64,000 nucleotides of DNA, from positions 248,001 to 312,000 of the forward strand of contig NZ_JAJMLZ010000002.1 of assembly GCF_022227765.1 (NCBI RefSeq), in the 5' to 3' direction. The notes below the pieces were generated by a model, which saw nothing but the letters and a program-made list of their open reading frames with translations, ran no database searches and was not told the origin of the DNA. Below, in pieces: positions 12,720-22,300 of this stretch (position 1 is the first letter of the stretch; every line of letters starts with the position of its first letter). The position numbers were made by a program, and so were the translations under genes. The DNA is from Ectothiorhodospira shaposhnikovii (lineage in GTDB: Bacteria > Pseudomonadota > Gammaproteobacteria > Ectothiorhodospirales > Ectothiorhodospiraceae).

Positions 12720-13742
12720 TCACGCCTTCAGGGATTGGGAGACACGGGCCAGTTCGTCCATGCGGGCCGCGGCGGCTCCGCTGTCGATCACCTCGCCGGC
12801 GCGGCGGATTCCCGCCTCCATGGAGTCCGCCAGACCCGCCACGTGGATGGCGGCCCCGGCATTGAGCATGACGATGTCACGGGCCGGACCCGGCTCGCCG
12901 GCAAAGATCCGACGGATCAGGGCCAGGCTCTCCTCGGCGCCATCCACCCGGATGGCATCCAGGGGGGTGCGCGGCATGCCGAACTGCTCGGGGGCGATGA
13001 TACGGCTGGTCACCTCGCCGTCGCGCAGTTCCGCCACCCGGGTCGGTGCGCCGATACTGATCTCGTCCAGGCCGTCCTCCGCGTGCACCACCATCACATG
13101 CCGGCTGCCCAGCAGCTTGAGTACCTGGGCCAGGGGCTCCAGCCAGTGGGTGCTGAACACCCCCAGCACCTGATTGGGGGCACCGGCGGGATTGGTCAGC
13201 GGTCCCAGCACATTGAACAGGGTGCGCACTCCCATCTCCCGGCGGGGACCCACCGCATGCTTCATGGCACCATGGTGCCTGGGAGCAAACAGGAAACCCA
13301 CGCCCACCTGGTTGATGCACTGGGCCACCTGCTCCGGCCCCAGATCCAGATTGACCCCGGCCGCCTCCAGCACGTCGGCACTGCCGGACTTGCTGGACAC
13401 GGAGCGGTTGCCGTGCTTGGCCACCCGCCCGCCGGCGGCCGCCACCACGAAGGCGGAGGCGGTGGAGATGTTGAAGCTGCCGGAGGCATCCCCCCCGGTG
13501 CCGCAGGTATCCACCAGATGCCCGGCCTCCACCTCCACCCGGGTGGCCAGTTCCCGCATCACCGAGGCGGCGGCGGCCACTTCATCCACCGTCTCCCCCT
13601 TCATGCGCAGGCCCACCAGGAAGCCGCCGATCTGGGCCGGAGTGGCCTCGCCGGTCATGATCTGGCGCATCACATGGACCATCTCGGGTCCGGTGAGATC
13701 ACGCTGCTCGGTGACTGCGCGAATGGCTTCCTGCATGTTCAT
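12720..13742 (-). CDS. trpD: Anthranilate phosphoribosyltransferase
   Basis: 340 residues, the usual length for the monofunctional enzyme. It transfers phosphoribose from PRPP to anthranilate. The PRPP/Mg-binding glycine motif [11 protein letters not shown] and the following [19 protein letters not shown] segment are intact. The ATG overlaps the trpG stop by four bases, so translation is probably coupled. Confidence 0.95.
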
Positions 13743-16737: not shown

Positions 16738-17423
16738 ACCTTGGCCAGTTCAGCCCGCATGGCGGTGACGATGCTGTCATAGCGGTTGGGATCTTCCGCC
16801 CGGGCGGCACCGAAGATGGCGGAACCGGCGACGAAGGTATCGGCGCCGGCGGCCTTGATCTCGGCGATGTTGTCCACCTTCACGCCGCCATCGATCTCCA
16901 GACGGATGTCCAGCCCGGATTCGTCGATGCGGCGGCGGGCCTCCCTGAGTTTGTCCAGGGTGGCGGGGATGAAGCTCTGACCGCCGAAACCCGGGTTCAC
17001 GGACATGAGCAGGATCATGTCCACCTTGTCCATCACATAGTCCAGATAGGACAGCGGGGTGGCGGGATTGAACACCAGGCCGGCCTTGCAGCCCTCGTTG
17101 CGGATCAGTTGCAGGGTGCGGTCGATGTGCTCGGAGGCCTCCGGGTGAAAGGTGATGTAGTCGGCACCGGCCTTGGCAAAATCGGGAATGATGCGGTCCA
17201 CCGGCTTGACCATCAGATGGACGTCGATGGGGGCGGTGACGCCGTGCTTGCGCAGGGCCTCGCACACCAGGGGGCCGATGGTCAGGTTGGGGACATAGTG
17301 ATTGTCCATGACATCGAAATGGACGATGTCCGCGCCGGCGGCCAGCACCTGAGTGACTTCCTCGCCCAGCCGGGCGAAATCGGCGGAGAGGATGGAGGGC
17401 GCGATCAGATCAGGTTTTGCCAT
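16734..17423 (-). CDS. rpe: Ribulose-phosphate 3-epimerase
   Basis: A 229-residue TIM-barrel enzyme interconverting ribulose 5-phosphate and xylulose 5-phosphate (pentose phosphate or Calvin cycle). Signatures are [22 protein letters not shown] and [10 protein letters not shown]. The start [10 protein letters not shown] at 17423 is the family start; an in-frame extension of 12 residues has no support. It heads the rpe-gph unit. Confidence 0.95.
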
Positions 17424-17597
17424 GGGTCTTTGCCTCGTTATTGTCGGCCATCCCGGCACCCGGCGGGAGCCGGGGCGGAGATAACGTTATTCGGTTTGCT
17501 TCCTTGGGTGGTGGAGGCAATGTAACCCAAGGCGCCGGGAAAATTAAGCATGGGGTGATACGGTGGGAGTCCATGCCGCCACCCGGAAACCGCTCAA

Positions 17598-19472
17598 TCA
17601 ATACTCCCCGCCCGACGGCCACATCTCCGGCGCGAAGCGCACCACCTGATTGCGGCCGTTCTCCTTGGCGGCATATAGTGCCACATCGGCGTATTTCAGC
17701 ACCTGCCAGAAGGCCTGGGCATCATCCGGATAGGCGGCCAGGCCGATGGAGAGGGTCTTGTGAAGCTCTGCGCCGGCCACCCTGAAGGGATGGGCCTGCA
17801 CCGCCTCGCGGATCTTGTTGGCCACGTCCAGCGCCGCCTCCGCGCCGGTGTCCAGCAGGATGATCATGAACTCCTCGCCACCATAGCGGATGACCAGATC
17901 GGATTCACGCAGATGGGCCTGGAAGATGCCGGCCAGTTCCCGCAGGATCTGGTCGCCCACATCGTGCCCGTAGGTGTCGTTCACGGTCTTGAAGTAGTCC
18001 AGATCCAGCATCATCAGGGTCATGGGCATCTGACGGCGCTTGCACTGCGCCACCAGGCTGTCGGAATACTCTTCCAGAAAACGGCGGTTGCGCAGGCCGG
18101 TCATGGCGTCCTTGAGGCTGGATTCGCGCAGGCTGGCCATCAGGCCCTTGGCCTGCAGTACCGGCGCCGCTTCCCGCAGATAGGCGCTGATCAGGGGACG
18201 GGCACGGATCAGCGCCGGTATGTTCTGGGGTGGCACCACCAATTGCACCACACTGCCCACGCCGCCGGACTGGATGATGGGCAGGCACAGATAGCTGCGC
18301 CCGTCGGCCAGGGCCTCGCTGTCGAAGGCACGACACAGGTGACGGTTCTCCAGGCCATCGATGGCGTGGCCGGTGCGCACCGCCCTGCAAATGGTGCTCT
18401 GTTCCAGGATGTCGGGACGGCACCAGCGGATCTCCTCGTGAAGCACCCCGTCCACTACCACCGTATCCATCAGACGCTTGTCCCGGTCCACCTGATAGAT
18501 GGAGAAATGCGCCATGCCGAACTCGGTACGCAGGACTTCGCTGATGCGGAAGAAAACTTCCTCGGTGGTCTGGTCCTCCTCGATGGCCTGCTTGAACTGG
18601 GCCACCTTCACCAACCCCGAAACCGTGGTGGCGGTCTCCTCCAGCAGATTGGCCCTGGGGTCGGGCGCGGTATTCACCAGCCGGGCCACATGGTCGCGGA
18701 TCTCGGTCAACTTGTGGGTGATGGCATCGGCCATTTCATTGAAATGGTTTGCGATCTGCCCGATCTCGTCGCGACTGCGACTGTGAACCCGCTGGCTGAA
18801 ATCCCCGCCGCTGGCCAGTCTGGCGGCCTTGCGGACTTCTTGGGTGGTCTCCACCAAAGGGCGAAGCAGACGCCCCAGAAAGACCATGGACAGCACGCCG
18901 AACAGCCCCATGATGACCACCAGGAACAGGGCCGTGACCATGCCGGCGGTCTTCATGTGGCCCACGGAGACGGTCAGTGTGACGGCGCCCAGGGCGACAC
19001 CCTCGGGGGCCTGATGGCAGGCCATGCAGTTGATGTCTCCGTTGGAGGAGGCGATGTAGGGAATGGTGGCGCGGAACTCCTCGCCGAACAGTCCGCCGAC
19101 CAACCCGAAGTAGGGCTCGCCGCTTGCCAGCACCTGCCGGTCGATGTCATCGGCCGGTGTCTCCATCGGCAGGCCTTCGCCGTGCTGCGCGATGACCCGT
19201 TCCCCGCGGATCACCCGCACCTCGTTGAGGCTGTTCACCTCCGCCAATCGCCGCAACATGGAGGCCCGACGGTCAATGGTGTCGTTGAGCATGGCCTCGG
19301 TGAGGGAAACACGGATCATCTCCGCCGCCGTGCGGGTATGTTCCGTGGCCGAACGGACTGAAAAATCCCGGATCAGCGCCATGCTGGACAGGCCGACGAC
19401 CAGCATCATGGTGAGCATGACCACAAGCAGTGCGCCCATGGCCTTGGTTTGCAAGCGGCTGCTGCTGGTCAC
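17598..19472 (-). CDS. Membrane diguanylate cyclase with periplasmic CxxCH motif, HAMP, GAF-like and GGDEF domains
   Basis: 624 residues. Order: TM helix 13-34; a periplasmic sensor carrying CMACH at 149-153, a c-type haem attachment motif; TM helix about 176-200; HAMP about 200-255; a GAF-like region about 295-440; and GGDEF. The active site is GGEEF (531-535), with an RESD product-inhibition site at 522-525, so cyclic-di-GMP synthesis should work. Periplasmic CxxCH sensors in Geobacter bind haem c and sense redox or gases; that role is inferred here. The GTG start has AGG seven bases upstream. The gene is monocistronic and not next to any cytochrome gene. Confidence 0.9.
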   Translation of the reverse strand: MTSSSRLQTKAMGALLVVMLTMMLVVGLSSMALIRDFSVRSATEHTRTAAEMIRVSLTEAMLNDTIDRRASMLRRLAEVNSLNEVRVIRGERVIAQHGEGLPMETPADDIDRQVLASGEPYFGLVGGLFGEEFRATIPYIASSNGDINCMACHQAPEGVALGAVTLTVSVGHMKTAGMVTALFLVVIMGLFGVLSMVFLGRLLRPLVETTQEVRKAARLASGGDFSQRVHSRSRDEIGQIANHFNEMADAITHKLTEIRDHVARLVNTAPDPRANLLEETATTVSGLVKVAQFKQAIEEDQTTEEVFFRISEVLRTEFGMAHFSIYQVDRDKRLMDTVVVDGVLHEEIRWCRPDILEQSTICRAVRTGHAIDGLENRHLCRAFDSEALADGRSYLCLPIIQSGGVGSVVQLVVPPQNIPALIRARPLISAYLREAAPVLQAKGLMASLRESSLKDAMTGLRNRRFLEEYSDSLVAQCKRRQMPMTLMMLDLDYFKTVNDTYGHDVGDQILRELAGIFQAHLRESDLVIRYGGEEFMIILLDTGAEAALDVANKIREAVQAHPFRVAGAELHKTLSIGLAAYPDDAQAFWQVLKYADVALYAAKENGRNQVVRFAPEMWPSGGEY

Positions 19473-19910
19473 TGGAAACCTCGCGACCCCATAGCGGGGT
19501 AAATCCCCACATTGTACGCCCTCAAGGCCCGGTTGGCCCGGGGCTGTCGGAATCGCAAGCCGGAGTATAGGACGAATAAACGCCGTTTTTCCGTCCGGGC
19601 CAGGGCCTGTCCAAGGTCCAATACATTCTACCGCCGTGACAGCGGTCGCCCCAGTCGTGCTTCAGGTGTCCAAGCGGAAATAAATAAAGGGGGTTAAAAG
19701 TTGTTGCAAGGCCCTTAACCTACCATTCCAGTCGGATATGGCGCGGAATGCCTGCTATACTCGGAATGAAGCCACCGCACCGACTCCCTCACCGGGGGAA
19801 TAATTCGCTCCGAATCGGGCGGTGATCAGCGATTAGGGGTGGGAAACAACAGTATGGGTTGAGGAGCTACCGGAAAAAACTGGACGAAGCCTTGAAGAAG
19901 GACGCGACAC
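19473..19910. other. Gene-free stretch between the diguanylate cyclase and the tnpB unit
   Basis: No credible gene was seen. Base composition is less GC-rich around 19660-19760. It should hold the diguanylate cyclase promoter (minus strand) and the left end of the tnpB element, but I could not place the left boundary or its recognition motif. A 22-codon frame rich in Lys (RKKLDEALKKD, about 19860-19926) may be a gene remnant. Confidence 0.4.
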
Positions 19911-20114
19911 ATGACGTACCGGATTGAATCAGGCTATCCGCTGGAAAGCGATTGGCTGCCCGCCAGTGTTTTCGCGCAACACCACGAAATCCTATCGGCT
20001 GCGGTGGCGATCGCCATAGAAGGCGTAGACGATCCTGAAGCACAGGAAGTTCGCGTAATTTGCGTGGAAACCGGCGAAGTGGTCTGGCGTTCGACCGAAG
20101 AACGATATGAGTGA
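19911..20114 (+). CDS. Small protein of unknown function upstream of tnpB
   Basis: 67 residues, acidic, with no membrane segment or known motif. The second half (VRVICVETGEVVW) could form a beta hairpin. It ends six bases before tnpB on the same strand, so the two could be translated from one message. It may be a passenger of the element or a host gene cut by it. The ribosome-binding site is weak. I do not recognise a family. Confidence 0.4.
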   Translation: MTYRIESGYPLESDWLPASVFAQHHEILSAAVAIAIEGVDDPEAQEVRVICVETGEVVWRSTEERYE

Positions 20115-20120
20115 CGTGCC

Positions 20121-21455
20121 ATGCAACTAACCCACAAGATCGCGCTGTGCCCGACACCGGAACAGACCGACTACTTCAAGCGTGCCTGTGGTACCGCGCG
20201 GCGCGTCTGGAACTGGGCGCTGGCCGAGTGGAACGGGCAATATGCGGCCGGTCTCAAGCCCGAGGCGATGGCGCTCAAGAAGCAGTTCAACGCTATCAAG
20301 TACCGTGACCCGCAATGGCTGGACAAAGACGGGCAGCCGTGGCTCAAGACCATCCATCGCGACGCCCATGCCCAGCCGTTTGCGCATCTGGCCAGGGCAT
20401 GGGATCGGTTCTTCAAGGACACCAAGGTAGGCAAGCCGGCCCATGCGCCCAGGTTCAAGAAAAAAGGGCGCTGCCGTGATAGCTTCTATGTGGCCAACGA
20501 CAAGTTTCGCATGACAGACAAGACGATCCGGCTACCCAAGGTCGGGGACGTAGCGATGGCCGAAGCGTTGCGCTTTGAGGGCAAAATCCTGGGCGCGACC
20601 GTCTCGCGCACGGCTGATCGCTGGTTTGTTGCGGTGCAGGTCGAAGTCAAAGACAGCGACTTTTACCGCCAGTGCACAGGCGATGGTGTGGTTGGGGTGG
20701 ATGTCGGCGTCAAGGCCGCTGCCACGCTGTCTACCGGCGAAGTGATTGAGGCGCCCAAGCCGCTCAAACGCGCACTACGACGGCTCAAGATTCGCAGCCG
20801 TCGGCTCAGCCGCAAGCTCACGGCGGCCAAGATCAAGGCCGGACTTAAGCCGAACCAATCCATCCCTAAAGGCACGAAGCTGCCAGCCTCGAACAACCGT
20901 CAGAAGTCTGCTGCGACATTGGCAAGGCTGCACAAGCGCATTGCCAATATCCGAGCGGATTTCACCCACAAGCTCACCACGCGGCTCTGCCGCGAGAACC
21001 AAGCGGTGGTGATCGAGGATTTGCACGTCAAGGGCATGCTGGCCAACGACCGGCTGGCGCGTGCCATCAGCGACGTGGGCTTTGGGATGTTCCGCTCGCA
21101 GATCGAATACAAGACGGTGCGCTACGGCACCCAGCTGATCGTGGCGGATCGCTGGTATCCGAGTAGCCGCCTGTGCTCGGTCTGTGGTTGGAAGCATGAG
21201 GCGCTGACGTTGAAGGATCGGGAATGGACGTGTCCGCAGTGCGGAACACGCCATGACCGTGATCACAACGCAGCGCTCAATCTTGAACGGCTGGCAACCG
21301 CAACTGCCCTACCCGTGGCGAGTCCGTCCGGCAACGGTGGCGCTATGTCTGGAATGGTTCCAGACGTAGTCGGGAAAGTCACGCCTGTCAGATACGATTC
21401 CGGTAAGGGTTCGGGGCAGGAAGGGAACAGTGCGCACTTTCGCGCACGTTTTTGA
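20121..21455 (+). CDS. tnpB: TnpB, RNA-guided nuclease of an IS605/IS1341-type element
   Basis: 444 residues: an N-terminal helix-turn-helix-like OrfB_IS605 part, a RuvC-like nuclease and a zinc finger. The catalytic carboxylates look intact: D194 (GVDVGVK), E299 (VIEDLHV) and D381 (DRDHNAALN). Zinc ligands are C352/C355 and C371/C374. Characterised TnpBs cut DNA guided by an RNA from the element's right end; this function is inferred from the family. There is no tyrosine transposase TnpA nearby, so the element is probably not self-mobile. The last 60 or so residues are a low-complexity tail whose DNA doubles as structured RNA (see 21340-21458). Confidence 0.92.
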   Translation: MQLTHKIALCPTPEQTDYFKRACGTARRVWNWALAEWNGQYAAGLKPEAMALKKQFNAIKYRDPQWLDKDGQPWLKTIHRDAHAQPFAHLARAWDRFFKDTKVGKPAHAPRFKKKGRCRDSFYVANDKFRMTDKTIRLPKVGDVAMAEALRFEGKILGATVSRTADRWFVAVQVEVKDSDFYRQCTGDGVVGVDVGVKAAATLSTGEVIEAPKPLKRALRRLKIRSRRLSRKLTAAKIKAGLKPNQSIPKGTKLPASNNRQKSAATLARLHKRIANIRADFTHKLTTRLCRENQAVVIEDLHVKGMLANDRLARAISDVGFGMFRSQIEYKTVRYGTQLIVADRWYPSSRLCSVCGWKHEALTLKDREWTCPQCGTRHDRDHNAALNLERLATATALPVASPSGNGGAMSGMVPDVVGKVTPVRYDSGKGSGQEGNSAHFRARF

Positions 21456-21476
21456 TAGCAGACCGAGGATCAAGTG
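21340..21476 (+). ncRNA. Putative omega RNA (reRNA) of TnpB with guide
   Basis: The 3' end of tnpB is rich in inverted repeats: TCTGGAA (21348-21354) with TTCCAGA (21358-21364), and GTGCGC (21430-21435) with GCGCAC (21442-21447). The second is followed by GTTTTTGATAG. In studied elements the scaffold covers the tnpB 3' end and the guide is the first 15-20 bases outside the right end. Here that would begin near 21456-21459 and read into EAL-coding sequence. The exact end of the element is not defined from one copy. Confidence 0.5.
21456..21475. mobile_element. Inferred right boundary of the tnpB element
   Basis: The tnpB stop (21453-21455) lies 6 bases after the terminal hairpin, and EAL coding similarity begins at 21459. 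The junction therefore falls at about 21450-21460. No target duplication is expected for this element type. Confidence 0.45.
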
Positions 21477-21611
21477 GATTCCCTGAGGCGTTACCACTGC
21501 GACGAGTTGCAGGGCTTCCTGATCAGCCGGCCGTTGCCAGCAGAACAAGTGCCGGCGTTTCTGCACAAGCGCTGCTCAGAACCCTCCACCGCCCCAAACT
21601 CGTACGGGTAG
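21459..21611 (+). pseudogene. 3' remnant of an EAL-domain (c-di-GMP phosphodiesterase) gene
   Basis: Reading from 21459, 50 codons encode QTEDQVDSLRRYHCDELQGF and then LISRPLPAEQVPAFL, ending in a TAG at 21609-21611. This is the hallmark end of EAL domains (xTExQxxxLxxxGCDxxQGYxxSRPLPAxx). It begins exactly where the tnpB element ends, with an in-frame TAG just before. No upstream EAL part is found left of the element. The parent gene was probably disrupted and its 5' part lost. Confidence 0.75.
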
Positions 21612-21692
21612 CCCGCCGCGTCATATCTATCCCGGAATTCCGAGGCTCCGATCGACGACGCGAGCGTCGGCTGTCCGGCCGGTTTTCGCCCT

Positions 21693-21708
21693 GGAGACCG
21701 TGGTCTCC
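21693..21708 (-). terminator. Hairpin just past the methyltransferase gene
   Basis: GGAGACC and GGTCTCC, separated by two bases, lie immediately after the minus-strand stop at 21710. There is no T tract, so it may act as an RNA 3'-end stabiliser instead. Confidence 0.35.
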
Positions 21709-21709
21709 C

Positions 21710-22300
21710 TTATTCGGGCTTGACGGCCATGGCCACCGTGTATTCCCGCCCCTGCTTGACCTTGTCGTAGTTGCCGAAGACTTCCTTGAAGGCCCGCTCG
21801 ATGAAGCGCCGTAATCCGGTGATGGTCACCACGTAGATCCGGCCGCCGGGGTGCATGTGATTGAGGGCATCGTACAGATACAGGTACAGCATCTCCTTGC
21901 CCACCTTGGCCGGCAGATTGGAGGTCACCAGATGGAAGCGGCGATCGCCGACGGCGGAAAAGCCGTTGCTCAGGAAGGCCTCGGTGTTCACGATGCCGTT
22001 CAGGCGGGCATTCCTTGCCGCATACTCCACCGCGACGAAGTCCTTGTCCACCAGGCAGGTATGCCCCCGGGGCGCCAGACGGGCCAGGGTCAGGCCGATG
22101 GGGCCGTAACCACAGCCCAGATCCAGGCAGTCATCGGTCTCGTTCACTTCGATGAAATCCAGCAGCAGATGGGTGCCGGCATCGATGCCCCGGGGTGAGA
22201 ACAGACCCCAGGTGGTGTGGAAATTCAGGGACTGGCCCCGCAGGGTATCGGCAAAGACGATGTCTTCCCGCAGAGAGCGGATGTAGGCGTCACGTTCCAT
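21710..22300 (-). CDS. Class I SAM-dependent methyltransferase, RsmC/small-domain type
   Basis: 196 residues with a Rossmann SAM motif DLGCGYGPIG (about 59-68) and an acidic VDKD strand end. The (N/D)PPx-like catalytic motif is changed to SNLPAKVGKE. The Methyltransf small family includes RsmC and RlmG, which make m2G in rRNA, and close relatives of unknown substrate. At 196 residues it lacks the N-terminal half of RsmC, so the substrate cannot be assigned. It lies three bases downstream of purK on the same strand and may share its message. Confidence 0.8.
   Translation of the reverse strand: MERDAYIRSLREDIVFADTLRGQSLNFHTTWGLFSPRGIDAGTHLLLDFIEVNETDDCLDLGCGYGPIGLTLARLAPRGHTCLVDKDFVAVEYAARNARLNGIVNTEAFLSNGFSAVGDRRFHLVTSNLPAKVGKEMLYLYLYDALNHMHPGGRIYVVTITGLRRFIERAFKEVFGNYDKVKQGREYTVAMAVKPE

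What the first reader, a model, noticed from the sequence alone, without database searches (positions are those of the whole stretch)
20121..21611. TnpB with an intact nuclease core and a predicted guide taken from an EAL gene
The RuvC triad and zinc finger look intact. Hairpins at the 3' end fit an omega RNA. The first bases outside the element (CAGACCGAGGATCAAGTGG) encode part of an EAL domain, so TnpB may target an intact EAL gene copy or the empty site. No TnpA is present, suggesting retention or exaptation.
Basis: partly seen in the sequence, partly recalled or inferred. Interest (0 to 1): 0.7.

Follow-up and report, generated by a model that had tools for sequence, protein, structure and literature searches.

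The report
Decayed IS607 element with intact TnpB
A worn-down mobile element still carries an intact-looking RNA-guided DNA-cutting enzyme whose guide copies part of the signalling gene it once landed in, and many of its relatives sit between a gene's ribosome-binding site and its start codon.

Summary
TnpB (20121-21455) is complete, with D194/E299/D381, a zinc finger and a covarying right-end RNA. Relatives place the right end at 21461, so the guide starts at 21462 (ACCGAGGATCAAG...), three bases later than read. A same-genus genome keeps the uninterrupted response-regulator/GAF/GGDEF/EAL gene, reading GTGGAG|ACCGAGGATCA. The element is IS607-type: a 25-codon tnpA remnant and a conserved 67-aa passenger ORF precede tnpB; the left end and most of the EAL gene are gone. 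The own genome holds no GGAG-flanked site within 3 mismatches of the 20-nt guide; targeting of an own EAL copy is unsupported. The nearest leads are fliM (GGAG, first 11 guide bases, 6 mismatches in 20) and a site at 13577-13596. Among 32 elements with a recognised right end (31 relatives and this one), 17 lie 1-12 nt before an ATG (control 73 of 864 GGAG sites), and the tnpB tail frame stops 3 or 6 nt from the right end in 31. AGGAG is a published TAM of many IS607 TnpBs and the Shine-Dalgarno core. Bold, untested reading: this lineage lands on ribosome-binding sites and lets ribosomes restart on the displaced gene. New variant of a known kind.

The parts
19853..19927 (+). 3' remnant (25 codons incl. 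stop) of an IS607-type tnpA (serine recombinase)
   Evidence: tblastn with the L038 TnpA matches its residues 187-208 at 73%; that TnpA has MerR PF00376 and Resolvase PF00239; DNA similarity to L036, L043, L062 and L064 starts at 19852-19856 (four of six relatives given; L034 only from 19910, L038 none)
19911..20114 (+). conserved 67-aa passenger ORF, function unknown
   Evidence: 73% identical ORF at the same place in L034 and L036; W/L034 dN 0.16, dS 1.5; homologues without tnpB within about 1.5 kb in L148 and L149
20121..21455 (+). tnpB, 444 aa; RuvC D194, E299, D381; zinc-finger Cys352/355/371/374
   Evidence: dN/dS about 0.13-0.17 against five relatives
21313..21461 (+). right-end omega-RNA scaffold overlapping the tnpB 3' end (5' limit not determined)
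   Evidence: codons after residue 400 change evenly at the three positions in five comparisons
21343..21369 (+). covarying scaffold hairpin
   Evidence: columns 32-42 with 48-58 of A1: 8 of 11 pairs with a both-side change
21460..21461 (+). inferred AG crossover dinucleotide and right end of the element
   Evidence: terminal AGCAG in all 32 elements (partly by selection, since the end was recognised by such motifs) and invariant in A1; G004 empty site
21462..21481 (+). predicted guide (first 20 nt of flank)
   Evidence: first bases beyond the conserved end; same position in the G004 empty site
21459..21611 (+). 3' remnant of the interrupted RR-GAF-GGDEF-EAL gene (reading frame; the gene's own DNA starts at about 21460)
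   Evidence: 90% DNA identity to G004 over 21460-21611; domains of the intact gene

Best explanation
This is a tnpA-deleted IS607-lineage insertion sequence that inserted at a GGAG inside an RR-GAF-GGDEF-EAL gene; later deletions removed its left end, nearly all of tnpA and most of the EAL gene. TnpB should trim its own transcript into a right-end omega RNA whose guide (from 21462) matches the right half of the empty site, and cut DNA carrying NGGAG followed by that sequence. That normally punishes loss of the element or copies it into empty alleles. No such site was found in this genome, so it could act only on incoming or sister DNA with the intact EAL allele. Shown: anatomy, right end, insertion site, intact triad, covarying RNA, no close target. 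Inferred: transcription, RNA processing, the TAM, cleavage, the order of the deletions.
For: TnpB families; PDB sequence relatives include a TnpB, 8bf8, E 1.5e-50 (that it is ISDra2's is recalled); right end in 32 elements; covariation; empty site in a syntenic same-genus gene; further empty sites for L042, L049, L050; published TAM AGGAG in 18 of 22 strains (passages of PMC11061315); TnpB dN/dS 0.13-0.17; no close target in the own genome.
Against: No expression, RNA or cleavage data. NCBIfam scores it higher with the IS200/IS605 TnpB model (312 bits) than with the IS607 model (268), both under their cut-offs. W departs from columns invariant in 22 relatives at two places (L195V, next to D194, and A272K), effect unknown. 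No matching Rfam family. dN/dS against distant relatives cannot exclude recent loss of function. The ISXfa1 precedent has TAM GGG and crossover GG, not GGAG and AG. Left flank and left end of the window copy are lost, so its TAM rests on G004. In L048 GCATGAC stands on both sides of the element, which insertion without duplication does not explain.
Confidence: 0.75

Rival explanations
1. Lineage property, added to the main explanation: these IS607 elements settle on Shine-Dalgarno sequences ((A)GGAG), between ribosome-binding site and ATG, and the insertion is tolerable because the tnpB frame ends 3-6 nt from the right end, so terminating ribosomes can restart on the displaced start codon. The window copy is a coding-sequence exception.
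For: 17 of 32 elements lie 1-12 nt before an ATG of an ORF of 80 aa or more; control 73 of 864 GGAG sites (AGGAG: 22 of 238), Fisher p 4e-10; 14 of 17 downstream proteins have a Pfam family, GlyS, RecX and UreG-type among them; empty sites before an ATG for L042 and L049; tail stop codon 3-6 nt from the right end in 31 of 32; GGAG left flank in 17 of 22; insertion puts GCAG where GGAG stood
Against: The 32 are not fully independent (L037/L041/L063, L039/L042 and L055/L057 share an assembly; L051 and L065 look like one site). L045, L055 and L057, counted among the 17, carry a stop inside tnpB, and L055, L047, L044 have no Pfam family. Without L045, L055, L057 and L065 it is 14 of 28, p 3e-8. 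The tail evolves as RNA, not protein, so its open frame may be inherited. Selection against coding insertions alone would raise the share near starts. PMC10666635 (abstract) finds that coupling needs overlaps or very short distances and is almost lost at about 20 nt; distances here are 7-16 nt.
Confidence: 0.35
2. Exapted RNA-guided regulator (TldR-like): TnpB kept to bind rather than cut, for example at fliM.
For: fliM carries GGAG plus the first 11 guide bases; tnpA is lost
Against: RuvC triad intact; two other sites lie as near by the same count; guides differ between insertion sites of the relatives
Confidence: 0.03
3. Inactive remnant: an intact-looking but silent TnpB that has not yet decayed.
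For: Left end and most of tnpA gone, EAL gene mostly deleted, no close target
Against: Open frame, intact triad, 2 departures from 123 invariant columns, conserved scaffold
Confidence: 0.2

Closest known systems
IS607 TnpBs guided by RAGATH-18-derived RNAs (ISFba1; Cell Res 2024, PMC11061315; passages read)
   Same: IS607 setting; TAM AGGAG matches the (A)GGAG left of this clade's elements; RNA at the right end; RuvC D-E-D
   Different: Their reRNA is stated to be independent of the coding sequence and to start 13 nt after tnpB; here the frame runs through the scaffold to 6 nt from the end. No RAGATH-18 match (not checked that this Rfam copy holds the family).
ISXfa1 TnpB (NAR 2023, PMC10711439; passages read)
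   Same: IS607 TnpB; the right-flanking crossover nucleotide belongs to the scaffold, so the guide starts after it, as inferred here
   Different: Crossover GG and TAM GGG there; AG and GGAG inferred here
ISDra2 TnpB (PDB 8bf8, 8ex9; the name is recalled)
   Same: Sequence relative over residues 7-397 with aligned D, E and D
   Different: IS200/IS605 element with TTGAT TAM and Y1 transposase (recalled)
tnpA-less solo tnpB elements (IS1341-type, recalled)
   Same: tnpB kept without tnpA
   Different: Here a tnpA remnant and intact relatives show an IS607 origin

Membership tests
TnpB (OMEGA) RNA-guided nuclease | OrfB_IS605, TNB and HTH domains, RuvC D-E-D and zinc ribbon | tested here: met
TnpB (OMEGA) RNA-guided nuclease | RNA from the right end running into the flank | tested here: inconclusive
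   conserved, covarying structure up to the right end; the RNA itself was not seen
TnpB (OMEGA) RNA-guided nuclease | guide-dependent DNA cleavage | not testable with these tools
   needs biochemistry
IS607 family | serine recombinase TnpA with N-terminal MerR-type domain | tested here: met
   met in the relative L038; the window keeps only a 3' remnant of it
IS607 family | insertion without target-site duplication, crossover at a shared dinucleotide | tested here: met
   seven empty-site alignments for L042, L049, L050 run through the junction without extra bases; window right side only; dinucleotide AG is inferred, GG in the type element; L048 has an unexplained flanking repeat
RAGATH-18 IS607 TnpB | RAGATH-18 motif in the reRNA | tested here: not met
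   cmscan of 19400-21800 up to E 5 gave one irrelevant match; presence of RAGATH-18 in this library not checked
RAGATH-18 IS607 TnpB | reRNA independent of the tnpB coding sequence | tested here: not met
   scaffold overlaps the frame up to 6 nt from the right end
TldR (exapted nuclease-dead TnpB) | loss of RuvC catalytic residues | tested here: not met
   triad intact

The most novel reading that the evidence does not exclude
A lineage of IS607 elements uses the Shine-Dalgarno core as landing site and TAM, splits genes (glyS in L037 among them) between ribosome-binding site and start codon, and keeps them expressed by ending its own tnpB frame, which runs through the omega RNA, within 6 nt of the junction so that ribosomes restart on the displaced ATG. 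About half of its guides then carry host start-codon sequences.
Probability: 0.3. Interest if true: 0.65.

Novelty: new variant of a known kind. Interest (0 to 1): 0.45.

Why it matters
The window copy is a decayed member of a known kind, with its insertion site resolved by an intact orthologue. Its lineage points to a way an RNA-guided mobile element could live inside operons: a TAM equal to the ribosome-binding site gives it a landing pad before many genes, and the stop codon at its end may rescue translation. Reporters can test that. I saw no mention of such landing in the listings of searches of the held open-access library; beyond listings I saw passages of five papers and the abstract of a sixth.

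Tried and rejected
EAL self-targeting: not supported, no close match in the own genome; the nearest GGAG-bearing match with an intact seed is in fliM (named by eye from the translation). Known RNA family: none. Small ORF: no Pfam, NCBIfam, PHROGs or PADLOC match better than E 0.03; the model from two sequences has pLDDT 70 and no Foldseek match at E <= 0.001; DUF905 at E 0.04 and 0.14 is only a lead. More distant relatives as a control: of 49 loci 34, mostly Ktedonobacteria, were given a right end; their tnpB stops 81-128 nt before it and 3 of 34 lie before an ATG (0-13 nt), Fisher p 9e-5 against 17 of 32. Set aside as not clean: no shared GGAG was seen at their (noisily placed) left ends. One search gave nothing useful.

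Rows dropped: of 36 loci, 32 were given a right end (L053, L062 cut by the contig end; L069, L104 showed no recognised end); 'recognised' means by motif. A1 uses 31 of the 32 (L058 left out). Left ends were sought in 22 loci with a pattern that itself requires GGAG or GGAA, so raw flanks were also read: 17 GGAG, 2 GGAA, 3 neither or unclear. The protein comparison used 22 relatives: L045, L055, L057 dropped for an internal stop, L042, L048, L058, L060, L061, L063 not entered; the script failed at its last line, before the tails of L045 and L110. Of six full-length L050 empty-site hits, four were aligned. In one search an ATG inside a longer ORF counts for elements and control alike.

Full report
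What is there. The window is contig 12, 248001-312000, of a 3.34-Mb genome; nine same-genus genomes were searched. ORF 20121-21455 encodes a 444-aa TnpB. Motifs place the RuvC residues at D194, E299 and D381 and the zinc-finger cysteines at 352, 355, 371 and 374, in agreement with the alignment to a solved TnpB. Of 123 columns invariant in 22 relatives, the window protein differs at two, L195V and A272K; against five relatives it has dN 0.14-0.17 and dS 1.0-1.2. The genome has two other, distant TnpBs.

Which element. Close relatives (74-79% identity for the nearest eleven) are in Beta- and Gammaproteobacteria, in a few MAGs labelled otherwise, and on a Sulfuricystis plasmid (one search kept the best 80 of 534). 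In 36 loci compared, six keep tnpA as one near-full-length match (L036, L038, L043, L055, L057, L062; the query was L038's own); L064 has it in two overlapping pieces; the others have part or none. The L038 TnpA has a MerR domain followed by a Resolvase domain, the IS607 order described in PMC4058570 (passages). The window keeps the last 25 codons (19853-19927); DNA similarity to four of six relatives starts at 19852-19856, and no left-end motif was seen in 17001-20121.

Small ORF. 19911-20114 overlaps the tnpA remnant and ends 6 nt before tnpB. It is intact in L034 and L036 (73% identity), broken in L043 and L064, and reduced to short remnants in L038 and L062 (by eye). Of 369 class genomes searched, three have a match: the own one, G252 and G307. 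G307 and one of the G252 places have no tnpB within about 1.5 kb; the G252 one lies on a contig that also carries an element with tnpB 9-10 kb away. W against L034: dN 0.16, dS 1.5. It looks like a real, mobile passenger gene of unknown function.

Right end and RNA. Thirty-two elements (31 relatives and the window) show a recognised right end; all end in AGCAG, 17 in TTGATAGCAG, and the DNA beyond diverges. That agrees with ISXfa1, where the right-flanking nucleotide is scaffold (passages of PMC10711439). RNAalifold on 31 sequences gives 37 pairs, 18 with a both-side change; shuffles give 11.0 +/- 1.4 and none of 500 reaches 18, and slid versions give 6-11 (relatedness and the fitted structure favour the observed value). 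The window strand folds at z -3.19. Codons after residue 400 overlap this RNA and change evenly at the three positions, dN/dS about 0.56 against L034 and about 0.9-1.05 against four others: the stretch is held as RNA rather than as protein. Rfam has no matching family.

Insertion site. Genome G004 (same genus) has, near the orthologous methyltransferase gene, an uninterrupted gene for response-regulator, GAF, GGDEF and EAL domains. It reads GAGGGCGTGGAG|ACCGAGGATCAGG where the window reads GATAGCAG|ACCGAGGATCAAG. About 150 bp of that gene remain in the window, the next G004 gene (DUF2189) is missing too, and in G003 the GGDEF and methyltransferase matches lie 64 bp apart. Empty sites were also found for L042, L049 and L050. 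All seven alignments made run through the junction without extra bases; the base run before it is GGAG in four (L154, L157, L153, L156), GGAA in L155, and neither in L158 and L170. GGAG precedes the left end in 17 of 22 elements inspected, AGGAG in 11 of them. AGGAG is the TAM for 18 of 22 strains in PMC11061315. Unexplained: in L048 GCATGAC stands on both sides of the element.

Targets. The 20-nt guide with up to 3 mismatches occurs once more in the genome, without GGAG. GGAG plus 16 guide bases with up to 3 mismatches gives, besides the element's own end, fliM (GGAG, first 11 guide bases, 6 mismatches over 20), window 13577-13596 (mismatches at guide positions 3, 5, 10) and one site without GGAG. 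For ISFba1 single mismatches in positions 1-13 abolish or impair cutting, so I expect no self-cleavage.

Lineage pattern. In 17 of 32 elements an ATG of an ORF of at least 80 aa follows the right end within 1-12 nt; GGAG sites in the flanking DNA do so in 73 of 864, AGGAG sites in 22 of 238 (Fisher p 4e-10). Fourteen of the 17 proteins have Pfam families, among them glycyl-tRNA synthetase beta (L037), RecX (L048) and a UreG-type protein (L060). The tail frame of tnpB stops 3 or 6 nt from the right end in 31 of 32 (L058: 100 nt), which puts stop and displaced ATG 7-16 nt apart. Against this: L045, L055 and L057 have an internal tnpB stop; some loci share an assembly or site; without L045, L055, L057 and L065 the count is 14 of 28, p 3e-8; survival bias could add to the pattern; the open tail may be inherited; and PMC10666635 (abstract) holds that coupling needs overlaps or very short distances and is almost lost at about 20 nt. 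The restart mechanism is inference; the position statistics are shown.

Verdict. Observation confirmed with a 3-nt correction; targeting of an own EAL copy not supported; the copy is a decayed IS607-lineage element. The lineage-wide position before start codons is the part worth following.

Noticed in passing
19911-20114: Conserved 67-aa ORF between tnpA and tnpB, with homologues away from tnpB elsewhere (one beside apparent conjugation genes in L149, read by eye).
   Followed up: partly
19472-21710: The gap between the GGDEF gene (17598-19472) and the methyltransferase gene (21710-22300) varies in the genus: 64 bp in G003, an RR-GAF-GGDEF-EAL gene plus a DUF2189 gene beside the methyltransferase in G004, the element here.
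   Followed up: partly
L048 3816-3840 and 5674-5693: GCATGAC stands on both sides of the element between the apparent recA end and recX, although the family is not expected to duplicate its target.
   Followed up: no
L054 near 3919 and 5356: A Massilia copy of the element interrupts a gene that looks by eye like an aminoglycoside adenylyltransferase; not pursued.
   Followed up: no
L037, L041, L063: Three copies in one Rhodocyclales MAG each sit 8 nt before a start codon (glyS, an epimerase-type gene, a DUF499 gene).
   Followed up: yes
L174 (own genome contig 2, 97397-97416): fliM (by eye) carries GGAG followed by 11 bases identical to the guide start.
   Followed up: partly
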